Positions 1,728 to 31,099 of a stretch of DNA of 34,950 nucleotides are shown here, in pieces (the stretch's first letter is position 1; the number at the start of each line of letters is the position of its first letter). Position numbers and translations under genes: made by a program. The stretch is from a virus. The stretch is from positions 1 to 34,950 of the IMG/VR virus record IMGVR_UViG_3300044858_000527. The stretch is one strand, 5' to 3'. The notes under the pieces are model-generated. The model saw nothing but the letters and a program-made list of their open reading frames with translations, did not search any database and was not told the origin of the DNA.

Positions 1728-3881
1728 ATGCCATTACAAAAAATACAACTACGACCAGGTCTAAACCGTGAAGGCACGGATTATAGCAACGAAGGCGGTT
1801 ACTTTGATGGGGATAAGATTCGTTTTCGTTCAGGCTTTCCAGAAAAGCTAGGTGGTTGGATTCGTTTAAGTGCTAGTAGATTTTTAGGTGTTGCTCGTTC
1901 TATTTGGAATTGGGCTACTTTGGCTGGATTTAACTATCTTGGTATCGGCACAAACCTTAAATTCTATGTTGAGTCTGGTGGCTTCTATTACGACATCACA
2001 CCTATTATTGGTAGAACAACCTATAACAATGCTATCTCTACAGGATTTACAACCTTAGTAGCTAACGTCACAATCAACACAACTACAATTTCGTTAACAA
2101 ACGCTGCTTATTTTGCACCGCAAGCTGGGGTAATGAAGATTGATAGCGAGCAGATTTACTATAATGCTATTACGGCAAACGTAGCTACAAACTGTATTCG
2201 TGGTTTTAACAACACAACTGCTGCAACCCATACTGCTGGCGCTAACATCGCAAGCGGGTACTTTCAGTTCTTTGATGCTAATAACGTTTCTAACACTAGA
2301 GACTTTTTAATCATGTCCAACTGCACAGCGGTTGGTGGTTTAACTGCAAACGTTCTTAACCAAGAACATCAAGTATTTGAATATGGAACAAGCTTTTGGT
2401 ATGCGCCAGCTTTAACTACAGCGGATACAAATCTTACTAATATTACCTTTACTACGTCGAAAGTAGATGCTGGTGGGGGCAATAACATTACTGTTGATTA
2501 CCTAGTTCCTGTAGGTCTAGATGTATTTACGTTCGGTAACGGTTGGGGCGCCGCTCCTTGGGGTTTCTACGGATGGGGTAATGCTGCACCGCAAACAGTA
2601 GGTTCACAACTTCGCTTATGGTCCGCAGATAATTATGGCGAGGATTTAGTATTTGCCCCTCGTGGCGGACAAATCTATTACTGGGATGCTGCTACAGGTG
2701 TACAGGTTAGAGGTCAATCTTTAGCGACGTTAGCTAACGTAGCTGTAGCTACTAGTGGACAGTGGGTTCCAAATGTAACAAATGAAGTGGTGTCTTCTGA
2801 TATTCAGCGTTTTGTTATTGCTATGGGCGCTAACTCCTACAACCCTGCAGACCCATTAACACCGTTTGATCCTATGTTGGTGCGTTGGTCTGACCAAGAA
2901 AATCCATTTCAATGGGAACCTGAGATTACTAATCAAGCTGGTGAGTTCCGTTTATCACACGGCTCTTACATCGTAACATCTATTTTCACCCGCCAAGAGA
3001 TTCTAGTATTAACAGATTCAACTTTGTACTCTATGCAGTATCTTGGGCCTCCCTATGTTTGGGGCTTTACCGTATTGATGGACAACATCTCAATTATGGG
3101 TCCAAATGCGCTGATAACCGTAAACAACGTTACATACTGGATGGGCGCAGATAAGTTCTATATGTATTCTGGTCGTGTAGAAACGCTGCCTTGTGCTTTG
3201 CGCCAGTTTGTTTTTGCCGATATTAATAAAGACCAATCATGGCAGGTAACTTGCGGAACTAATGAAGGCTTTAATGAAGTCTGGTGGTACTATTGTTCCG
3301 TAAATAGCACCGTGGTTGACAAGTATGTAATCTATAACTACTTAGACCGTGTTTGGTATTACGGCTCTTTAAACCGTACTTCTTGGTTAGATTCTGGTAT
3401 TAGGCAAAACCCTATGGGCGCATTCATTAACGGTGTTGATGAACTTGGAAACCCAACAGGAACTATTGTTTACCATGAGGTTGGTAACGATGACTCTTCT
3501 ACCGCAACGACAGTACCTATTGTTTCCTATGTTCAGTCTTCTGACTTTGACATTGGGGATGGGCATAACTTTGGTTATGTATGGAGAATGTTGCCCGACA
3601 TTAACTTTAACGGCTCAAACGTAAACCAGCCTACGGTTACTATGCAGTTACGCCCACGCCAGAACAGCGGTACAAGCTATAATACGTCAGATATAAACTC
3701 TGTTCAAAGTGCCAATAACTTTAGTACAGTTCCCGTATATACAATTCAAGAGTTTACAGGGCAGGTCTATACCCGCCTTCGTGGTCGTCAAATGGCTATG
3801 AAAATCTACTCTGATGGATTAGGGGTGTCTTGGCAGATGGGTACTCCACGTATTGATATTAGACCTGACGGACGACGTTAA
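1728..3881 (+). CDS. Large tail/portal-vertex structural protein, hub or DNA-stabilisation-like
   Basis: The protein has 717 residues. The N-terminus (RPGLNREGTDYSNEGGYFDG, then DKIRFRSGFPEKLGGW) is a pattern I associate with virion proteins of podovirus-like aquatic phages. Aromatic- and Gly-rich segments such as WGAAPWGFYGWGN (about residues 272-284), WSDQENPFQWEPE and TNEVVSSDIQRFV recur at intervals typical of beta-propeller or multi-sheet tail proteins. Phage P22 gp10, which plugs the portal after DNA packaging, is the closest functional analogue I can suggest, but this protein is larger and the match is by general character only. The stop overlaps the next start (TTAATGG). A virion role is well supported by context; the precise role is not. 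Confidence 0.55.
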   Translation: MPLQKIQLRPGLNREGTDYSNEGGYFDGDKIRFRSGFPEKLGGWIRLSASRFLGVARSIWNWATLAGFNYLGIGTNLKFYVESGGFYYDITPIIGRTTYNNAISTGFTTLVANVTINTTTISLTNAAYFAPQAGVMKIDSEQIYYNAITANVATNCIRGFNNTTAATHTAGANIASGYFQFFDANNVSNTRDFLIMSNCTAVGGLTANVLNQEHQVFEYGTSFWYAPALTTADTNLTNITFTTSKVDAGGGNNITVDYLVPVGLDVFTFGNGWGAAPWGFYGWGNAAPQTVGSQLRLWSADNYGEDLVFAPRGGQIYYWDAATGVQVRGQSLATLANVAVATSGQWVPNVTNEVVSSDIQRFVIAMGANSYNPADPLTPFDPMLVRWSDQENPFQWEPEITNQAGEFRLSHGSYIVTSIFTRQEILVLTDSTLYSMQYLGPPYVWGFTVLMDNISIMGPNALITVNNVTYWMGADKFYMYSGRVETLPCALRQFVFADINKDQSWQVTCGTNEGFNEVWWYYCSVNSTVVDKYVIYNYLDRVWYYGSLNRTSWLDSGIRQNPMGAFINGVDELGNPTGTIVYHEVGNDDSSTATTVPIVSYVQSSDFDIGDGHNFGYVWRMLPDINFNGSNVNQPTVTMQLRPRQNSGTSYNTSDINSVQSANNFSTVPVYTIQEFTGQVYTRLRGRQMAMKIYSDGLGVSWQMGTPRIDIRPDGRR

Positions 3882-7840: not shown

Positions 7841-9811
7841 ATGAACATTACACAATTATCAGAACAATTAAAAGATGTGCCTCAAGGTACGCTTGTTGGC
7901 TATGCAAAGAATCCTAATAGCGTAGTGCCTCAGTTCTTAGCTCTAGCTGAGATTCAGCGCCGTCAACAATTACAAGCTCCAGCTTCAGCTCCTACAGGAA
8001 CCGTTGCTGATGATGTGTTAGCACAAGCAGCGCCACAACCAATGGCACCACAACAAATGCCACAGATGCCTCCTCAACAAGTTGATCCTCGTATGTTGCA
8101 AGCTATGCAAGCACAGCAACTCCCAGAGAACCAGCCTGGTGTAACCCAGTTACCTTCAGGTATGCCACAAGGGATGGCTTCTGGCGGTATTGTTGCGTTT
8201 GCTAATGGTGGTGAGGCTGATGATGAAGATTATCAAGATTATTTAGATAAGCGTGAAACTGCAAAACGTAGAAGTGGTGTTGACGAAATCTATGCAATGC
8301 TTAAAAATCGTGTTGCTGGCGTATCTGATTCACTCACTTCTGGTGTTAAAGATGCCACTTCTGGCATGAGAGAAGCAACTGCTGGCATTCGTAATATCCT
8401 TCCTCAGTCTTATGAGCAAGCTAAAAAAGAAACCCAGCCTTCAACAAAGGTTGATGATAACCATGTAGAAGGATTCCTTTCTAAGCTTGAACATCTTGAG
8501 AGTCGTGGTAAGCATTTTGATGAAAAGGGCAAAATCCTAACATCTAAAAAAGGCGCAGAAGGCATTATGCAAGTGATGCCTAAGACTCAGATTGATCCTG
8601 GTTATGGAGTAACTCCAGCCCGTGATAAGAGTCCAGAAGAGTTAAAGCGTGTTGGCAGAGAGTACGGTCTTGCCATGTTAAATGAATTTAAGGATCCTCA
8701 AGTTGCTGCTATGGCTTACAACTGGGGTCCTGGTAATGTTAAGAAGTGGTTAGCATCAGATAAGACTTTACCGATTCCAAAAGAAACTTTGAAATATAAA
8801 TCTCATTTTGCTCAAGGTGGTATTGCTAAGCTTGCTGTTGGTGGCGTTCCATTAGACGATTATTATGCTTCTAATTACTACGAAGATGGACAGGGTTATG
8901 AACCTGCTGTTGTTAAGCCTCAGACATTCTCAATAGCTGACTATGATGCTGGTCAAGACATGGCAGACTTTGAAGGCTATTCTCGAAACCCATTGTTGGC
9001 TGCAACAAATAAACCAGTAAATGAATACGATGAGATGTTGCGCAAGCAAAGTGAAGCTATTGAAGAAAATAAAGCAGGTAGAAAACAAGATGCTTACCTT
9101 GCTTTAATGCAAGCTGGCTTTGGCATGATGGGCGGATCATCTCCATATGCGTTCCAAAACATTGGTCAAGGCGCTGCTGCTGGTGTTAATGCTTACGCTA
9201 ACCTATCTAAACAGCGTGGTTCTGAGTTAAATGCACTGCGTAAGATTCAATCTAGCTCTTTAGAAGGTAAGCAGTTGTATGAAGCTAAGAAAATTGCACA
9301 AGAGCAATTAACTGAATATAAGAAAGATGCCTTAGAAAAACTAAATGAATCTAAGAAAAATGCCTTAGAAAGCTTAGATTACACCAGAAAAGAAAGAATT
9401 AGACAGAATCAAGAGAAAATTGATAATGCCGCAGAAGTTGCTGCAGCAACCGCAGAAGCTAAGCGTCGTGGATTACTAGACGGCGCACTAAAGAATGCCG
9501 CTAATGATGATGACTATCAGGCTACAACAAAGATTCTTAAGGAACTTGAGTCTGTAAAACCAGATGATCCTAAGATCCAGTATTACAGGGATAAGTTAGA
9601 AGCTATTAGACAGTCTTATATTCAGACTTCTTTGAAGGGCGAATATGTCCCTCCAAAATTGCCTGTGTACATTCCTCCTGTTAAACCGCCAAGCAAAGGT
9701 GTCTTGCAAAGCATTAAGAATATCTTTAGTACTAGTCCCCCAGTTTCTCCTACAAAGGTACCGTCTTCTAGTACACTACAGTTCGATGCAAGCGGCAATT
9801 TAATTCAATAA
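7841..9811 (+). CDS. Internal virion protein with lytic transglycosylase (SLT) domain
   Basis: The protein has 656 residues. The N-terminal part is Pro/Gln-rich and carries ASGGIVAFANGGE (residues 113-125). Residues about 205-312 form a soluble lytic transglycosylase domain: catalytic Glu220 in KLEHLESRGKH, then GAEGIMQVMP (238-247) and MAYNWGPGNVKKW (291-303). Such domains in phage particles open a hole in peptidoglycan during DNA entry. A second GGI motif, FAQGGIAKLAVGG (323-335), follows, and the C-terminal half (about 460-560) is strongly charged and predicted coiled coil. The enzyme lies among structural genes rather than the lysis genes, which supports a virion-borne entry enzyme. The C-terminal region has no recognised family. 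Confidence 0.8.
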   Translation: MNITQLSEQLKDVPQGTLVGYAKNPNSVVPQFLALAEIQRRQQLQAPASAPTGTVADDVLAQAAPQPMAPQQMPQMPPQQVDPRMLQAMQAQQLPENQPGVTQLPSGMPQGMASGGIVAFANGGEADDEDYQDYLDKRETAKRRSGVDEIYAMLKNRVAGVSDSLTSGVKDATSGMREATAGIRNILPQSYEQAKKETQPSTKVDDNHVEGFLSKLEHLESRGKHFDEKGKILTSKKGAEGIMQVMPKTQIDPGYGVTPARDKSPEELKRVGREYGLAMLNEFKDPQVAAMAYNWGPGNVKKWLASDKTLPIPKETLKYKSHFAQGGIAKLAVGGVPLDDYYASNYYEDGQGYEPAVVKPQTFSIADYDAGQDMADFEGYSRNPLLAATNKPVNEYDEMLRKQSEAIEENKAGRKQDAYLALMQAGFGMMGGSSPYAFQNIGQGAAAGVNAYANLSKQRGSELNALRKIQSSSLEGKQLYEAKKIAQEQLTEYKKDALEKLNESKKNALESLDYTRKERIRQNQEKIDNAAEVAAATAEAKRRGLLDGALKNAANDDDYQATTKILKELESVKPDDPKIQYYRDKLEAIRQSYIQTSLKGEYVPPKLPVYIPPVKPPSKGVLQSIKNIFSTSPPVSPTKVPSSSTLQFDASGNLIQ

Positions 9812-9820
9812 AAGGTTACT

Positions 9821-12800
9821 ATGGCAATTGAAGCCAAATTGTTTGATGGGACTACCCTTGAGTTTCCAGACGGTACAGACCCATCAGTAATCCAAAGTAC
9901 TGCCAAACGCCTGACTTTTGAGAGGCAACAGCCTGAGCCGTCTGATGATCCTATGGCTGGCGTTCAGATGACTGGCATGTCCCCTAAAATTGATGTTCCT
10001 AAGCCAACGCTTTTAACGGGTACTACAGCCCCTAAAGACATCCTTCCTACAGGTGAGTACCTTCCTACTACTGATAATCCTCTACAGCGTGTTTATGACG
10101 CTTCTACGCCCCTCCAAAGAGAAGAACTAGCCGCTAAGGATCCACGCTTTAAGCCTATCCATGAGTTCTATCTTGCCCAAGATTTAATCACTAAGACCGA
10201 ACGCCCTGACCAGTTTTATAAACCCATGGTGCCGGCGGATACTTTTGACACCCGCCTAGAAGCCCGTAAAAGCTTCTTAATGGGACAAGGTTTGGCGCCC
10301 GACTTTGCTGAAGCTACGGCTAAACGTCAGGCTATGGCCGGTGCTGGCAAGATGACCCCTTATGGAGAAGTAAGAGAAGCCCCTCCTGAGTACGATATTG
10401 AGCGTGAATATCGCATGCGTCCAGAGATGACTGGTATTGAAGAGACTACCCAGTTCTTAAAGCGTTCTGGCGTTAAAGGTGGATCAGCTATTCTCAAGGG
10501 TGCTGGCGGTATCAATATGTTTGTTGGCGATGTATTGGGTTTAGATACAACCGATACCAAGAGAACGCTTGATAGCTTAAACCGCTATACACAAGCTATT
10601 GGTGTAGCACCATCCAAACCAGTTGCTATTTTTGAGAATGCAGTTGAGTCTATTGCTCAACAAATGCCCGCATTAATTGGCGGTGTAGTTACTGGATCGC
10701 AGATTCCTGTATTAGCTTCTATGTTTGCTCAGTCATTTGGTCAGACTTATGACGATAGTAAACGCATGGGCATGAATACTTCTGATGCTGCAATGCGTTC
10801 AAGCCTATATGCGGGCTTTGAAGTATTGGGTGAGAAATTTGGTTTAGGCGATACTCTTAAAGGTATCAAGGCGATTGCCCAAGATATTCCAACAAAAGAC
10901 TTATCTACATTCTTTGCTAAAGCTTTAGTAAAAGAAATACCTGGCGAACAGCTTACTTATGCTGGTCAGTTTGCTACAGACAAAGGCTTTGGAGTAAACC
11001 CTGAAGCTGGCATTAAAGAGTTTTTACAAGGATCTGCTGACACCTTAGTAGCTACAGTAGCGCAAGGTTCATTAATGATTGGCGGTGGTGCTGCTGCACA
11101 ACAAGCGATTAAGGCTATGGGCGCCGCTAAAAAGCCAGAAGAAGTCATTACTCCGCAGATGGAGCAAAAGCTAGAAAGAACTAGAGAAGAGCTAGGCGGC
11201 AAAAGAGAAGAGCCTGTTGCTCCAGAGGCTACGACTGTTGCTCCAGAAGCAACACCAGAGCTTACCTTACCTAAAACATACGATGAATACATCAACCAAA
11301 TTAAAACTGAAGGTCTTGATGTAAACGATCCAGAAACTGCGGCTGCTGCAAAGCAGTTCTGGGAAGAGAATCAAGCTATGTTCCAACAGAAGGAGCCAAC
11401 CCCTCCAGAGGTTGGGGAAACCACAGTTCCAGTAACACCAGAGTCTAAGGCTTTAGATAAACAAGCTATGTTAGCTGAGCTTCCAATAAACCCACAGACT
11501 GTTGTTAAAGAAGCCATTAAAAATCCATTTGGTCCAGCGGCACAAGTGTTAGATAATGTTGAACGTCCTGCAACTACAAGAGTAAATTTTTCATCGGATA
11601 TTCCAAATGAAAATTGGTTGCAAGAAAAACGCTTTCTTACTACAAAATATGGTTATAAACCATCTGGCGCTCCAAAGGTTTATGGTAGTTTAACGGGTAC
11701 TTTTAATAAAAATGTTTTATTGCCAGTAGATGTGCTTGCAACAATTTCTGGCGAAAATAACGAGCAAAGTAATATTCGTCAAGAAGATTTAGATTCCCTC
11801 AAGAAGGTAATGGGAGAAACTGGGAAGCTTCCTCAGACTGAGCGAGGAGATTATGCCCCATTTATTACTGTTGATCAAAATGGAACTCCATATATAAGCG
11901 AAGGCAATCATAGAATTATGGCTGCTAAAGCGCTTGGATTTAAATATCTTCCAGTTGAGATTCGTTACTTTAATGGTGGTGAACGTGAGCGTGGATTATT
12001 AAAACCAGAACTTGTTCAGCGTTTAGATCAAGAGGCTATTCAAAAAGGTTTTTCTCCAGATAATTATGCAACCACTCCAGAAGATAAATTATCCACAGAA
12101 AATATTAAACGCCCACAGATTGAGAATATTGAGCGCACTAGCGTTGTGCCAGCAGAGCTTTTAATCCGAACAGATCGTACTCCTTCATTACGCACAGAGA
12201 TTACTCGCCTTAAAAACTTGTTTGAAAAAGGTCGTATCTCATCTGATATTGTTGCCAACCAAATTAGCAGACTGTTAGAGGACACTAAGAAAGAAAGAAC
12301 AGAAGCTAAGCGTGAGCGTGGTGGCAATCTGATTCTAGAGAAGATGAATCGTGCTGTACGCAGAGGTGAGCTTGATCAACAGGCGGTAGACTTTGCTACT
12401 TGGTTTATAGGTAAAAACCCTAATGTTGCTGATGATATAGCTATCTCTATTAAGAAGGCTGGAGAGAATACCCCTTCTGCTACCTACAATAGCATGTCTC
12501 GCCTAATTACTTTATTTAAAGACTCTGGCAATAGTGAGTCTGCAGTACACGAAATTCTTCACCATTCAGAGCGCATGATGCCTGAAAAGGTTCAGATTGG
12601 TATTCGTAAGCTATGGCTCAAGCGGATGCTTAAGAACGCTGACAAAGCTAACAAAGGTGATGATGTAGCATTAAAAGATTACTTTAAAAATGTCATTGAC
12701 TTTCATTTATACGATGACATGAACGCCATGAGGGAAGCTAAAAAGGCGGTTTCTGATGGCTCTGTAGATTATAGTAACTATCAGTTCTTTAGCCCGTCTG

Positions 12801-15800
12801 AATTTTGGGCGGTTAATGCTACTGAGATTTCACAATCTCGCTTTGAAGGCGATAAGTCCTTTATGGGCAAGCTTAAGCAATGGCTTAGAGAGTTTGGAGA
12901 GAAGGCTAAGAGCCTGTTTGGTTTAGATTCTAATGCTCCTATCATTCGTGCTTTAGATAGCTTAGCCAAAGGTGACGGCAAGTTTAAGAGCCAACTAATG
13001 CTTACTCAAGGCCAACAGTTTGAGAATGTAAGACGTACATTTAAGGCTAAGAAGACAGGCCAAGAAGTTTCTCCTGAAGCTACTCCTGAACTGTACTCGT
13101 TCACAATGCCAGAACAAAAAGATTTTATGTTTGGGTATACGAAGGATGATGTTTTGTATCAATGGTTTGATCAGCAAATTGATACCAAGATGTTGCAAGA
13201 TGCTATTGAATCCAAAGGTAAGACGATTGATGATATGTTTAATGCATATCAAAAAGAAACTCTATACCACGGTAAAGTTGCAGCACAAGTTAAAGATTTC
13301 TTAAACGAAGAAGTTCTGCCTTTGGTTAAAGAGATGAACAAGCTTGGCATTCCATTAGAAAGTTTGGAAGAGTATCTACATATGCGTCACGCTGAAGAGC
13401 GTAACGACAAGATGAACGAGCGCAATATTGGTAACGCCAAGCTACTAGACCAAGGATCTGGCGTTCATACTGATAAAGCCAGAGAGTATTTAAAAAACTT
13501 ACCCAAAGAAAAAAGGGAACAGTTTGAAGCTTTGGCTGACAAAGTATATGCCATCATCAAGGAAACTCAGGATGTTCTGGTGCGTTCTGGCGCTGAAGAA
13601 GAAGATTTAATTAATACATGGCGTAAGACTTATAAAGACTATGTTCCTCTGTTTCGTGCTGATGATGACTTTGTTAGCCCTCCAGGTACACAAATGGGTT
13701 CTGGATTTAGGGTTCGTGGAAGCACAAACAAGCGGGCTACTGGTTCTACCAAAGAAGTGGTAAACGTTATTGGCAACATTATTTCTCAGCGTGAACGGGC
13801 TATTGTTCGTCAAGAGAAAATGAAAGTTGGTCATGCTTTATATGGTTTAGCAATCACCAATCCACAGCCAGACTTTTGGTATGCGTTTAATCCTGATGCT
13901 GTCAAGAGCAAGAAAGCTGCTAGACAAGAGCTAATAGATTTTGGCGTTCAAGATGTTGATGCCGTCATGAATTTGATTGACGCTCCTCGAACACCTTTTA
14001 TTGATAAAGAAACTGGCCAAGTTGGCTACAAACTATCTCCCCTGACATTGGCCCAAGATAACGCATTTCCGGTACGTATTAACGGAAAAGACCGTTACAT
14101 CTTCTTTAACCGCAATAATCCACAAGCAATGCGTATGGCACGAGCCATTAGTGGTTTAGACATTGATAAACTAGACGCAGCTACCACAGCTATCGGTGCA
14201 GTTTCTCATTGGATTGCTGCGGTCAATACCCAATACAACCCTGTGTTCGGTATGGTTAACTTAGTGCGTGACTCCGAAGGCGCTATGCTTAACTTGGCTT
14301 CAACAGAGTTAAAGGGTATGCAAAAAGCAGTAGCTAGCAAGATTCCTCCTTCCTTAAATACCATTAGAAAGGTATTAAAGGCTGAACGTAAGGGTATTCC
14401 CTTGGATGAAATGTTTAAAAAAGGTACACCAGAGTACGTAGATGCCATGCTCTTTAAGCAGTTTAGAGATGATGGCGGTCAAACTGGTTACAGAGACATG
14501 CTCATGCGCCGTAAGGAAGAAGAGCAGATAGTTGAGCAAGAGCTTAAGAAGTACTCTGACAACAAATTCAAGAAAGCTGGTCGTAGGATTGCTCAAGGCT
14601 TATCAGACTTTAATGATGTAATGGAAAACTCTGTTCGCTTTGCTGCATATAAAACTGCAATTGCCCCTAAGAGCGAAGGTGGTGCTGGTCTATCTAGGGA
14701 TAAGGGCGCTTATATTGCTAAAGAATTAACGGTTAATTTTGATCGCAAAGGAAGAATAGCTAAGCGTATTAACTCTTATTACGTCTTCTTTAACGCTGGC
14801 TTGCGTGGTACTGCTCGTATCTATGAGACTTTAACTTCTCCTGCTGGTAAGAAAATTATGACTGCAGGTGTTGGCATAGGAGTAATTCAAGCCGTTATGT
14901 TATCCGCATTTCCAGATGATGATCCTCCTGAGTTTATTCGTGCTAAGAACTTTGTAATTCCAACTGGTGGCAATAGAATTATTACTATTCCTTATCCACT
15001 TGGATATAACGTATTTCCAAGTATTGGGCGTATTGGCTCAGAGTTTATGTTTGGTGATCGCAAAGCTGGCTCAGCCTTAACAGGTATGGCTGGGGCTATA
15101 GTTGAAGCATTCAACCCATTAGGTGGTGGTGAGTTAGGTTATCGTACATTTGTGCCAACAGTGCTAAAGATTCCAGTCTCCGTTGCTGAGAACAAAGATA
15201 TGAACGCACGACCAATTTACAAACCAGATCGTGCAAGTGATCCTACCCCTGGCTATACACGTTCTAGCGAAAGAGCTAGCTCAATCAGCCAAGGTGTTTC
15301 TTATGCTTTAAATTATTTAACAAGTGGATTTGAAGAGAATACTAAAGGAAAGATTAGTCCTACTGCAGATGAGATTGATTACTACGCTGGTCAAGTAACC
15401 GGTGGTGTTGGTCGTGAGCTAGCTAAGACAAGAGATGTGGTTTACAACCTAATTAACGGTGAAGAAACTCCGTCTTATCGTATCCCATTACTTGGTCGTT
15501 TCTATGGTGATGTTGATACTAATTCAACTAAAGCACAGAGGTTCTTTAATAACGTTGTTGAAATGTCTCAGCACGAACACGAAATTAAAAATCGCAAAAA
15601 GTATGGTCAAGATTATTCTGAATACATTGAGAGGCATCCAGAAGCCGTGCTTTGGACAAGAGTTAATAGCGTAGAAAATCAAATCTCTAAATTAAGACAA
15701 GAACGCAGGGATTTAAAAGAGCGTGGTGCTGATGAGGAGTACATTAAAGCTAAGGCTGACCGCATTATTGAATTAATGGATAACATTAACGAGCAGATAT

Positions 15801-15817
15801 CTGAAGCTAAAAAATAG
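9821..15817 (+). CDS. Giant polyvalent virion protein with ParB-like, HExxH and LPD38-like regions
   Basis: The protein has 1998 residues. A short N-terminal module (LEFPDGTDPSVIQSTAKRL, residues 13-31) is common at the start of large virion proteins. A hydrophobic Gly/Ala-rich region lies at about 210-430. Residues about 590-740 resemble a ParB/sulfiredoxin-like fold, with EGNHR at 694-698 followed by IMAAKALGFKYLPVEIRY. At 910-914 there is HEILH, an HExxH zinc-metallopeptidase-type motif. The part from about 1430 to 1790 (VNTQYNPVFGMVNLVRDSEG, then FNAGLRGTARIYE and a hydrophobic helix near 1678-1697) resembles the LPD38 domain of phage polyvalent proteins. A charged coiled coil ends the protein. 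Such proteins are thought to be packaged and injected with DNA to act on the new host. Confidence 0.65.
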   Translation: MAIEAKLFDGTTLEFPDGTDPSVIQSTAKRLTFERQQPEPSDDPMAGVQMTGMSPKIDVPKPTLLTGTTAPKDILPTGEYLPTTDNPLQRVYDASTPLQREELAAKDPRFKPIHEFYLAQDLITKTERPDQFYKPMVPADTFDTRLEARKSFLMGQGLAPDFAEATAKRQAMAGAGKMTPYGEVREAPPEYDIEREYRMRPEMTGIEETTQFLKRSGVKGGSAILKGAGGINMFVGDVLGLDTTDTKRTLDSLNRYTQAIGVAPSKPVAIFENAVESIAQQMPALIGGVVTGSQIPVLASMFAQSFGQTYDDSKRMGMNTSDAAMRSSLYAGFEVLGEKFGLGDTLKGIKAIAQDIPTKDLSTFFAKALVKEIPGEQLTYAGQFATDKGFGVNPEAGIKEFLQGSADTLVATVAQGSLMIGGGAAAQQAIKAMGAAKKPEEVITPQMEQKLERTREELGGKREEPVAPEATTVAPEATPELTLPKTYDEYINQIKTEGLDVNDPETAAAAKQFWEENQAMFQQKEPTPPEVGETTVPVTPESKALDKQAMLAELPINPQTVVKEAIKNPFGPAAQVLDNVERPATTRVNFSSDIPNENWLQEKRFLTTKYGYKPSGAPKVYGSLTGTFNKNVLLPVDVLATISGENNEQSNIRQEDLDSLKKVMGETGKLPQTERGDYAPFITVDQNGTPYISEGNHRIMAAKALGFKYLPVEIRYFNGGERERGLLKPELVQRLDQEAIQKGFSPDNYATTPEDKLSTENIKRPQIENIERTSVVPAELLIRTDRTPSLRTEITRLKNLFEKGRISSDIVANQISRLLEDTKKERTEAKRERGGNLILEKMNRAVRRGELDQQAVDFATWFIGKNPNVADDIAISIKKAGENTPSATYNSMSRLITLFKDSGNSESAVHEILHHSERMMPEKVQIGIRKLWLKRMLKNADKANKGDDVALKDYFKNVIDFHLYDDMNAMREAKKAVSDGSVDYSNYQFFSPSEFWAVNATEISQSRFEGDKSFMGKLKQWLREFGEKAKSLFGLDSNAPIIRALDSLAKGDGKFKSQLMLTQGQQFENVRRTFKAKKTGQEVSPEATPELYSFTMPEQKDFMFGYTKDDVLYQWFDQQIDTKMLQDAIESKGKTIDDMFNAYQKETLYHGKVAAQVKDFLNEEVLPLVKEMNKLGIPLESLEEYLHMRHAEERNDKMNERNIGNAKLLDQGSGVHTDKAREYLKNLPKEKREQFEALADKVYAIIKETQDVLVRSGAEEEDLINTWRKTYKDYVPLFRADDDFVSPPGTQMGSGFRVRGSTNKRATGSTKEVVNVIGNIISQRERAIVRQEKMKVGHALYGLAITNPQPDFWYAFNPDAVKSKKAARQELIDFGVQDVDAVMNLIDAPRTPFIDKETGQVGYKLSPLTLAQDNAFPVRINGKDRYIFFNRNNPQAMRMARAISGLDIDKLDAATTAIGAVSHWIAAVNTQYNPVFGMVNLVRDSEGAMLNLASTELKGMQKAVASKIPPSLNTIRKVLKAERKGIPLDEMFKKGTPEYVDAMLFKQFRDDGGQTGYRDMLMRRKEEEQIVEQELKKYSDNKFKKAGRRIAQGLSDFNDVMENSVRFAAYKTAIAPKSEGGAGLSRDKGAYIAKELTVNFDRKGRIAKRINSYYVFFNAGLRGTARIYETLTSPAGKKIMTAGVGIGVIQAVMLSAFPDDDPPEFIRAKNFVIPTGGNRIITIPYPLGYNVFPSIGRIGSEFMFGDRKAGSALTGMAGAIVEAFNPLGGGELGYRTFVPTVLKIPVSVAENKDMNARPIYKPDRASDPTPGYTRSSERASSISQGVSYALNYLTSGFEENTKGKISPTADEIDYYAGQVTGGVGRELAKTRDVVYNLINGEETPSYRIPLLGRFYGDVDTNSTKAQRFFNNVVEMSQHEHEIKNRKKYGQDYSEYIERHPEAVLWTRVNSVENQISKLRQERRDLKERGADEEYIKAKADRIIELMDNINEQISEAKK

Positions 15818-27694: not shown

Positions 27695-27886
27695 TCAATG
27701 GGATGTCGGTATGTTTTCAATCTCACGTTCAGCAAGCATGGCATCAGCCAGCTCATAAGCCCTCTTGGCAGCTACTTCATCCCAAGTCTTTCCGCTGGAT
27801 AAATCAAACTTCCAGTCACCGGAACACATGCCACTCATAACTTTGGCCGCAAAGTAATCCCGCAGTCTGCGTTGTCTATCTGTCAT
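27695..27886 (-). CDS. Small helical phage protein (63 residues)
   Basis: It begins [20 protein letters not shown], then [20 protein letters not shown]. The RDYFAAKxM...AxxAYxxADAML pattern is common among small early phage proteins of unknown role. It overlaps the sigma-like regulator by ATGA, so it is the second gene of the operon. Confidence 0.6.
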
Positions 27887-28488
27887 AAATCTTCCTCTAA
27901 GTATGGTTTTAAATAATCTGACCTACTTGGATGGCGCATTTTACGCAATGCCCTAGCTTCCAACTGACGAATTCTTTCCCTACCCACATCAAACATATCA
28001 CCAACTTGTTCCAATGTTTGTTCCTCTGCGTCAATTCCAAATCGTAATTGCAATATCTTCTTTTCTCTTGGAGGAAGAGTTTCTAATTTTTCATCAACAG
28101 CTTTTTTTACATCCAATAAATATTCTTCGCTGCTTTGTTTAACATCAAATCCAATTAAATCAGATGCATTCTTTCCAAGTGCCGCACGTAATTGGTATTG
28201 ATCTAGTTTTCCTTCTGCGCTGCTTGTTTTTAAACGCATGGTTAATTGTTCTTCTGTCCACAAATCCGTTGGACAGGCGCCTAAAACCTCCATAACCGCT
28301 TGTGCCAACTTTGAAAATTCTCCATCGTTGTTTATTGGACAGGCCCGCAGCCCAACTAGTGCTGTAACTTGTGTGTCCGTTAGACCAGCAGATCGAGCAA
28401 ACTCTGCTTGAGATTTGTAGCCAGCATCCTCAATCGCTGACAGTAACAAGTTATTCCTAACCGTTACTTTCACTCGATACTCTTTCAT
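27883..28488 (-). CDS. XRE-type HTH fused to sigma70 region 4
   Basis: From ATG 28488 the protein has 201 residues. Residues about 14-80 resemble an XRE/Cro-type helix-turn-helix ([20 protein letters not shown], then [12 protein letters not shown]). Residues 138-186 are a sigma70 region 4: [20 protein letters not shown], then [20 protein letters not shown] and LRKMRHPS. Regions 2 and 3 are missing, so it cannot be a complete sigma factor; it more likely binds near -35 elements or the RNA polymerase flap. The strong ribosome site GAGGAGAGG and the promoter at 28511-28539 fix the start, making this the first gene of the leftward operon. Confidence 0.75.
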
Positions 28489-28510
28489 ATACCTCTCCTC
28501 TTTTTTTAAG

Positions 28511-28539
28511 ACTATAATCACAGTTATGAATACAGTCAA
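28511..28539 (-). promoter_or_regulatory. Near-consensus sigma70 promoter of the leftward early operon
   Basis: On the minus strand TTGACT (28539-28534) and TATAGT (28516-28511) are separated by exactly 17 bases; each box matches five of six consensus positions. Transcription would start near 28504, only about 16 bases before ATG 28488, leaving just the GAGGAGAGG ribosome site in the leader. This is the strongest promoter seen in the window and should be read by host RNA polymerase immediately after infection. Confidence 0.75.
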
Positions 28540-30116: not shown

Positions 30117-30302
30117 ATGGATTTACGAGAAGAAATAAAAAAGCAAGCTGGGGTAATCCCCGATGCGGTACAAAGAGGATCGGTGCAAACTACGATCAGG
30201 TGGAAAGAAAGAGCAATGAACGCTCTAAGAACTGCCAATAACCCTAAAGCAACCGAGCGAGAGCTAAAGACAGCCTTCGCTGAACTAATGAGGAATGTAT
30301 GA
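30117..30302 (+). CDS. Small helical protein (61 residues) ahead of the ParB-like gene
   Basis: It begins MDLREEIKKQAGVIPDAVQR and continues with a basic helix ...TTIRWKERAMNALRTAN, then ATERELKTAFAELMRNV. GAGAG lies upstream of ATG, and the stop overlaps the ParB-like start as ATGA. It is helical and charged and may be a partner of the ParB-like protein; no family is known to me. Confidence 0.55.
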   Translation: MDLREEIKKQAGVIPDAVQRGSVQTTIRWKERAMNALRTANNPKATERELKTAFAELMRNV

Positions 30303-31099
30303 AACTATCAGAAATTACACTTGACCCCGAACTGCAATCCCGTGAAACACTAAACCAGGACACGATCCATGATTATTCCGAGAAGATCAGAGAGGGAGTC
30401 AAATTCCCAGCCCTTAAGGTATACCGAGTTGGATCTCGCTATTATCTCGTTGATGGATGGCACCGCTACTTTGCTTATAAAAAGGCTGGCATAGTTGATG
30501 TAGAAGTCATTATTGTTGATGGCACAAAGCGTGATGCTCTGCTGGCGTCAACTGGTGTTAACAAAGATCACGGTCTGCCACCAACTCGTGCTGATAGACG
30601 CCGTGCAGTATTAAAATTACTGGACGACATGGAATGGTCTTTATGGAGTAACCGTGAGATCGCTGTTCAAACTGGCGTAACCCATCCAACCGTGATGGCT
30701 ATTCGTGAGTCTTTAGGTAAGCCACAACCTGAAGCAATTAAGTTTGAAAGAAACGGAAAAGAGTTTGAGCAGAAAGTAAAATACAAAGATGAACAACCAA
30801 CCGTACCGGCACCTGCCCCTGAAGAGGACAAACTCCATGAGCTGGCAACTGAAATTCAAGCCTTGGCTGAGGAGAACGAACGGCTCGAAGCCAGAGTTGC
30901 GGTCGCTGCTATGGAAGGTACGGCTACAGAGAAGGGGGCTGCTCAGGCTATCATTGAGGAGCTTCAAGCTACGGTTAAGAATCAAGAAATTGCAATCCGT
31001 TCATTAACCATTAGCCGTGATACTTTCCAAAACAAATGCTCTGAATTAATGAAGCAAGTTACTTACTGGAAAAAGCAAGCACAAAAAATGGCAGCGTAA
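30299..31099 (+). CDS. ParB/sulfiredoxin-fold protein with HTH and coiled coil
   Basis: The 266-residue protein opens with a ParB-like N-terminal domain (about 1-75): KLSEITLDPELQSRETLN, then YYLVDGWHRYFAYKKAG (48-64) where the DG(x)HR box is the conserved core. An HTH follows (about 115-137, WSNREIAVQTGVTHPTVMAI). The C-terminal third (about 178-260) is a long coiled coil rich in Glu and Leu. In phages such proteins act in partition, transcription or as nucleases or adaptors; which applies is unclear. Confidence 0.75.
   Translation: MKLSEITLDPELQSRETLNQDTIHDYSEKIREGVKFPALKVYRVGSRYYLVDGWHRYFAYKKAGIVDVEVIIVDGTKRDALLASTGVNKDHGLPPTRADRRRAVLKLLDDMEWSLWSNREIAVQTGVTHPTVMAIRESLGKPQPEAIKFERNGKEFEQKVKYKDEQPTVPAPAPEEDKLHELATEIQALAEENERLEARVAVAAMEGTATEKGAAQAIIEELQATVKNQEIAIRSLTISRDTFQNKCSELMKQVTYWKKQAQKMAA

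What the first reader, a model, noticed from the sequence alone, without database searches (positions are those of the whole stretch)
9821..15817. Polyvalent ~2000-residue virion protein with ParB-like and HExxH elements
One protein combines an N-terminal virion module, a ParB-like domain with EGNHR, an HEILH zinc-peptidase motif and an LPD38-like end. A packaged multi-domain effector delivered with DNA could process host or phage proteins at entry.
Basis: partly seen in the sequence, partly recalled or inferred. Interest (0 to 1): 0.6.

Follow-up and report, generated by a model that had tools for sequence, protein, structure and literature searches.

The report
Phage entry protein with swappable protease
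A giant phage protein, probably packed in the virus particle and injected with the DNA, carries a ParB-like domain and a metal-protease domain in front of a large conserved carrier end, and in related phages the protease is repeatedly swapped for a different one in the same place.

Summary
The 1998-residue ORF at 9821-15817 is real. H910, E911, H914 and EGNHR 694-698 lie exactly where stated; LPD38 lies at 1700-1890. The "N-terminal virion module" was not recognised by any library.

It is a phage polyvalent protein (class of Iyer et al. 2017): N-terminal region, cargo slot (ParB/sulfiredoxin-fold domain), zincin-like domain (HExxH plus E994), then an ~890-residue mostly helical module that contains LPD38.

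New here: among relatives found by that module alone, 36 of 45 with enough upstream sequence carry HExx(x)H within 600 residues upstream (0.96 expected in shuffles). A held-out set from bacterial genomes gives 18 of 23 (0.61 expected). The zincins fall into seven sequence families that replace one another in place (at least 21 changes on a tree). In two near-identical phages the protein ends are 92-94% identical while the middle, protease included, is unrelated.

Most likely the zincin cleaves its own polyprotein to free the cargo; a host-cleaving effector remains possible. The ParB domain is not the DdrB type. The layout matches N4 virion RNA polymerase, but homology of the C-terminal parts was not established.

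Known kind, new variant.

The parts
9821..15817 (+). polyvalent protein gene, 1998 aa plus stop
9821..11140 (+). N-terminal region, residues 1-440; no recognised domain; one hydrophobic stretch from residue 285 (Kyte-Doolittle 1.52); conserved in L011
11573..12082 (+). ParB/sulfiredoxin-fold domain (cargo slot), residues 585-754
   Evidence: replaced by ART-PolyVal in L012
11900..11914 (+). EGNHR, residues 694-698
   Evidence: E, G, N and R kept in 5 of 5 sequences, H in 4 of 5
12158..13030 (+). zincin-like metallopeptidase domain (family z0 of this report), residues 780-1070
12548..12562 (+). HEILH, residues 910-914 (predicted zinc ligands H910, H914; general base E911)
12800..12802 (+). E994 of PSEFWAVNA, predicted third zinc ligand
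   Evidence: invariant
13031..13144 (+). junction between zincin and carrier module, residues 1071-1108, with KTGQEVSPE
   Evidence: related motif at the edge of the module in relatives
13145..15814 (+). conserved, mostly helical C-terminal module, residues 1109-1998
14918..15490 (+). LPD38 (PF18857), residues 1700-1890
7841..9811 (+). neighbour: 656-aa protein with SLT transglycosylase domain
1728..3881 (+). neighbour: virion structural protein (phrog_3287)

Best explanation
It is a polyvalent phage protein made with the late genes, packaged in the head and ejected ahead of or with the DNA. The ~890-residue C-terminal module is the constant carrier part that holds the protein in the virion or ejection machinery. 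The zincin directly in front of it cuts the polypeptide in cis, so that the cargo, here a ParB/sulfiredoxin-fold domain predicted to bind nucleotides or DNA, is freed during maturation or just after entry. Shown here: the architecture, conservation of the catalytic residues, the fixed place of a zincin beside the module, and replacement of zincin and cargo in place. Taken from relatives in print: presence in the virion. Inferred, not shown: packaging, ejection, the cleavage itself and the action of the ParB-like domain.
For: Zincin placement: 36 of 45 module-found proteins with 600 or more residues upstream have HExx(x)H within 600 residues upstream; shuffles average 0.96 (largest value 4 in 200 shuffles); 0 of 45 in the first 600 residues of the module. 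Held-out bacterial-genome loci: 18 of 23, shuffles 0.61, largest 4. Seven zincin families with at least 21 changes among 62 labelled rows of an 82-row module tree. L037 and L121: ends 94% and 92.5% identical, middle unrelated, HEILHH against HELIH. In a separate branch the module is its own gene, with HExxH in another gene upstream, as expected if fusion followed by cleavage and separate genes are equivalent. L012 has ART-PolyVal in the ParB slot. JC1 gp69 is in virions. P1 DdrB is reported as processed before packaging (PMC5512222 section 8).
Against: No cleavage was observed. N4 virion RNA polymerase, with the same layout, is packaged uncut (PMC5512222). No cleavage site was found: the junction motif is also kept where the module stands alone, so it need not be a cut site. 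9 of 45 and 5 of 23 proteins lack HExx(x)H within 600 residues, though several have one further upstream. The beta sheet of a zincin was not recovered in the model.
Confidence: 0.5

Rival explanations
1. The zincin is an injected effector that cleaves host proteins; different families are kept because they hit different targets in an arms race.
For: Repeated replacement of the zincin family and of the neighbouring cargo fits diversification against hosts; Iyer et al. list host targeting as one possibility.
Against: The slot next to the module holds an HExx(x)H motif in 36 of 45 and 18 of 23 proteins, while the cargo slot upstream takes unrelated enzymes; a purely host-directed domain would be expected to be lost or moved as freely as other cargo.
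Confidence: 0.3
2. The zincin-like domain is mainly structural: it helps packaging, folding or inhibition of the cargo and need not cut anything, as may hold for the C1 part of N4 virion RNA polymerase.
For: N4 RNA polymerase is packaged uncut although the region with its HExxH domain is needed for packaging; [quoted passage not shown]
Against: 0 of 153 zincin-domain matches over 110 residues lack HExx(x)H (the profiles were built around that motif, so biased); H910, E911, H914 and E994 are invariant.
Confidence: 0.15
3. The protein is not in the virion but acts late in the producing cell, for example in assembly.
For: No proteomic data on this uncultured virus were found or looked for here.
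Against: Virion mass spectrometry of JC1 gp69; gene order beside structural and transglycosylase genes.
Confidence: 0.05

Closest known systems
Polyvalent proteins of phages and conjugative elements (Iyer et al. 2017, PMC5512222)
   Same: Several unrelated domains in one polypeptide, LPD38, zincin-like peptidase, ParB/Srx-fold domain, late-gene context
   Different: Its ParB-like domain is not the DdrB type; zincin family z0 has no Pfam or NCBIfam match; the fixed slot and in-place replacement of zincins were not in the passages that I read
N4 virion RNA polymerase gp50 (PMC12633501)
   Same: Layout N-terminal region, cargo, HExxH domain, ~1000-residue mostly helical end without solved relatives
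   Different: Cargo is an RNA polymerase; homology of the helical ends not established (profile match 3.7%, score 34.4; reversed controls 22.7 and 25.1 with the broadened alignment)
DarB-like proteins of Lessievirus JC1 (gp69) and of Pavtokvirus PEp14
   Same: JC1 shares the C-terminal module (25% identity) and is in virions; PEp14, Pavtok and Stean share the zincin family (33-35% identity)
   Different: 4500-4900 residues with methylase and helicase parts as annotated; PEp14's C-terminal end is only remotely related (profile match 88.9%)
MetMV AZF89913.1 (Methanosarcina virus)
   Same: C-terminal module, 37% identity over 890 residues
   Different: 3002 residues, a different zincin family (HELTH, z1)
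P1 DdrB
   Same: ParB-like domain and HExxH domain in one head protein
   Different: No detectable match of either the ParB domain (0.5%) or the zincin (4.9%) by profile comparison with the single P1 sequence

Membership tests
Phage polyvalent protein | Several domains of disparate activity in one polypeptide | tested here: met
   LPD38, ParB/Srx fold, HExxH...E domain
Phage polyvalent protein | Encoded beside virion genes | tested here: met
Phage polyvalent protein | Packaged in the virion and delivered | not testable with these tools
   uncultured virus; support only from JC1 gp69 in print
LPD38 proteins | PF18857 above its curated cut-off | tested here: met
   105.4 bits against cut-off 27
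ParB/sulfiredoxin superfamily | alpha+beta fold of ParB/Srx with the motif Arg | tested here: met
   SbnI E 0.038, probability 1.00; Srx Z 7.1, ParB Z 6.9, and the first 26 rows nearly all from this superfamily; no E-value below 0.001, so fold level only
DdrB-like ParB (PF18763) | Profile match to DdrB-ParB | tested here: not met
   no Pfam match; profile comparison 0.6%, while a true member (L103 domain) scores 97.7% against P1 DdrB
Zincin metallopeptidase | HExxH plus a downstream Glu ligand, conserved | tested here: met
   H910, E911, H914, E994 in 83 of 83 (biased set); HExxH in 10 of 10 of the unbiased set
Zincin metallopeptidase | Zincin fold (sheet plus two helices) | tested here: inconclusive
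   both helices modelled with high confidence, no strands; ParB part filled the search lists. Remote match of z0 to the AHELGH family z3: 82.8% over 139 columns, reversed controls at most 4.3%
N4-type virion RNA polymerase | RNA polymerase domain | tested here: not met
   no such domain in Pfam at E up to 1 or PHROGs at E up to 0.01
N4-type virion RNA polymerase | C2-type helical end | tested here: inconclusive
DarB (P1) antirestriction protein | N-6 methylase and helicase parts | tested here: not met
   no such domain

The most novel reading that the evidence does not exclude
A zincin plus the ~890-residue helical module is a general ejectable chassis of short-tailed phages, homologous to the C1-C2 end of N4 virion RNA polymerase, and any cargo (RNA polymerase, ParB, ART, methylase) can be placed on it; the protease is replaceable as long as some protease stays.
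Probability: 0.3. Interest if true: 0.8.

Novelty: new variant of a known kind. Interest (0 to 1): 0.5.

Why it matters
It turns a loose idea (polyvalent proteins often carry a peptidase) into a positional rule that can be tested: a protease of almost any zincin family sits beside the conserved end. It gives a ready natural experiment (two near-identical phages with different proteases and cargo between near-identical ends). If the end is a general delivery chassis, it would explain how phages exchange injected enzymes.

Tried and rejected
Rejected: DdrB-type ParB. Direct sequence relatives in the PDB: none for the whole protein and only chance-level rows for the profile, apart from weak SbnI rows (E 1.3-1.5) over the ParB part. 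Solved relatives of the C-terminal module: none retrieved, only helical hairpins; that absence is not proof of a new fold.

Tried without result: close-relative search with the zincin alone; megablast of window 1-25000 against phages; NCBIfam. A short N-terminal motif profile gave 34 domain rows, 28 in module proteins and 6 elsewhere, the latter weak, so it says little about a 'virion module'. The junction motif as a cleavage site: the regular expression fitted 27 of 80 against 8.3 in shuffles, but the motif persists in stand-alone modules, so not adopted. First ParB alignment was made with wrong segments by my own script error and was replaced; first MSA A3 misplaced row L094 and was replaced by A5. 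N4 homology: not significant.

Dropped before counting: 18 of 83 unique module proteins had under 600 residues upstream; the 45 are those from the module scan; 17 more came from the scan whose pattern contains HEILHH (16 of 17, biased) and 3 others (3 of 3). In one search, of 34 loci 7 had short upstream parts and 4 lacked the module start. Near-duplicate contigs remain in the 45 (for example L114, L119, L120). In one search one GHEGRHR-type match was skipped as ParB-like; rows are linked at E 1e-3.

Full report
OBSERVATION. The window is a virus record of 34950 bases. One open frame, 9821-15817 on +, encodes 1998 residues. HEILH at 910-914 and EGNHR at 694-698 are exact; each pattern is expected about 0.009 times in a protein of this composition. 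Pfam finds only LPD38 at 1700-1890 above its cut-off (E 5.3e-30). PHROG families of unknown function match the stretch from about 1110 to 1972 (phrog_14770 E 3.9e-166; phrog_616; phrog_10691), and a ParB-like PHROG matches 631-719 weakly. No library recognises residues 1-560 convincingly.

SURROUNDINGS. Upstream on the same strand lie a weak Rz-like match (E 0.0034), an endolysin, a virion structural protein and a 656-residue protein with a transglycosylase domain; downstream a metallophosphoesterase. The minus-strand block holds an Erf-like annealing protein and an exonuclease. This is the late-gene setting described for phage polyvalent proteins (PMC5512222, passages).

RELATIVES. In named phages the C-terminal module is widespread (145 records at E 1e-5 for the whole protein, none covering 80% of it); the zincin region is found in 5 Erwinia phage records only, and the ParB-like region in Dolichospermum phage Dfl-JY45 only. 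Profile searches of viral contigs gave 80 loci each (of 119 and 274 confirmed candidates) for the zincin and the module. L011 is related over the whole length (58.8%); L012 is related from residue about 529 to the end.

PARB-LIKE DOMAIN. Aligned in five proteins; E, G, N and R of EGNHR are kept in 5 of 5, H in 4 of 5. The model of residues 575-1095 has mean pLDDT 77.7, about 90 over this domain. The best solved matches are SbnI (E 0.038, probability 1.00), sulfiredoxin (Z 7.1, 80 residues, 2.5 A), ParB (Z 6.9, 77 residues, 2.7 A), Noc, serine kinase and Osa. It is not DdrB-like: profile comparison 0.6%, against 97.7% for a true member. In L012 an ADP-ribosyltransferase domain (ART-PolyVal, E 4.3e-27) fills the same slot between similar linkers.

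ZINCIN-LIKE DOMAIN. H910, E911, H914 and E994 are invariant in 83 of 83 aligned members; many were fetched by a HEILHH pattern. The unbiased figure is 10 of 10 same-family domains in proteins fetched by the C-terminal module, all with HExxH. The HExxH helix and the Glu helix are modelled with high confidence, but strands are missing and the preceding stretch has low confidence. Profile comparison with an AHELGH family reaches 82.8% over 139 columns, including the Glu motif; reversed controls give at most 4.3%.

THE POSITIONAL RULE. Of 45 module-fetched proteins with at least 600 residues upstream, 36 have HExx(x)H within 600 residues before the module; 0.96 expected from shuffles (largest 4); 0 of 45 within the first 600 residues of the module; 7 of 23 at 600-1200 and 0 of 14 at 1200-1800 upstream. 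In a held-out set from bacterial and archaeal genome contigs the figure is 18 of 23 (0.61 expected, largest 4; 1 of 23 inside the module). The upstream segments form seven families by sequence linkage at E 1e-3. On a tree of 82 modules, 62 labelled, at least 21 changes of family are needed (quick method, some long branches). Sister pairs with different zincins include L037/L121, L003/L001, L027/L118 and L132/L060. L037 and L121 are near-identical phages (aligned DNA pieces 83-96% identical); their proteins match at 94% over residues 1-573 and at 92.5% over the C-terminal end, while the middle with the zincin is unrelated. In a branch with L126, L116, L133 and L149 the module is a separate gene, and HExxH lies in another gene upstream.

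C-TERMINAL MODULE. About 890 residues, mean pLDDT 80.9, pTM 0.77, mostly helical. No solved relative was retrieved, but many predicted viral proteins match over the whole length (71 at E 0.001 or better, several named as LPD38 or polyvalent proteins). LPD38 is therefore only one part of a larger unit. Among 24 aligned full-length proteins (the window protein included), Pfam finds LPD38 in 24, ART-PolyVal in 5, ddrB-ParB in 3 and SLT in 1.

MECHANISM. Presence in the virion rests on a relative: JC1 gp69 was found with 51 unique peptides (PMC9144972, passages). A conserved end with a protease usually near it, the protease family being free to change, fits a shared task such as self-processing better than one fixed host target. 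This is inference. P1 DdrB is reported as cut before packaging, N4 polymerase is not (PMC5512222 section 8); P1 virion proteomics lists DdrB in the head (PMC9024508, passages). Iyer et al. already proposed self-processing and, as alternatives, host targeting.

COMPARISON WITH N4. N4 polymerase consists of an N-terminal domain, polymerase, C1 (2124-2375, HExxH) and C2 (2376-3500, mostly helical, no structural relative) (PMC12633501, passages). The layout is the same. Profile comparison of the module with an alignment of N4 C2 and 29 relatives gave 0.4% with the first alignment (score 24.7, reversed control 25.9) and 3.7% (score 34.4, 89 columns) with the broadened one, the same place in both directions; reversed controls of the latter scored 22.7 and 25.1. 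Suggestive, not established.

NOVELTY. Searches for LPD38, zincin, polyvalent, PLxRFG, ejection and Bcep22 terms listed no paper that, by title or abstract start, describes this positional rule; only four papers were opened, in part. The library lacks most subscription papers, so prior description cannot be excluded.

Noticed in passing
window 30299-31096 (+): A second, separate ParB-like protein (weak ParB_N, motif DGWHR, helix-turn-helix) beside a helicase and a C5 cytosine methyltransferase.
   Followed up: no
window 27883-28539 (-): Small protein with sigma-70 region 4 (E 8e-19), possibly a phage sigma factor.
   Followed up: no
L126, L116, L133, L149: The C-terminal module is a separate gene; an HExxH protein of 800 to 2300 residues is encoded upstream.
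   Followed up: partly
L037 7556-13582 and L121 7139-12640: Near-identical phages whose polyvalent proteins differ mainly in the middle, protease included.
   Followed up: yes
L005 (MetMV), L220, L224: The module occurs in a Methanosarcina virus record and in contigs binned as archaea (Nitrosotalea, Methanoperedens); binning errors not excluded.
   Followed up: no
window 13031-13144 and relatives: Short motif of the type RNIFGQPAPLxxW at the N-terminal edge of the module, kept also in stand-alone modules.
   Followed up: partly
L111, L112, L134: GHEGRHR motif, perhaps another ParB-like domain, between zincin and module.
   Followed up: no
L008 7653-11207: Dolichospermum phage Dfl-JY45 protein joins the same ParB-like domain (EGNTR) to a different HExxxH motif, HEVVAH.
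   Followed up: partly
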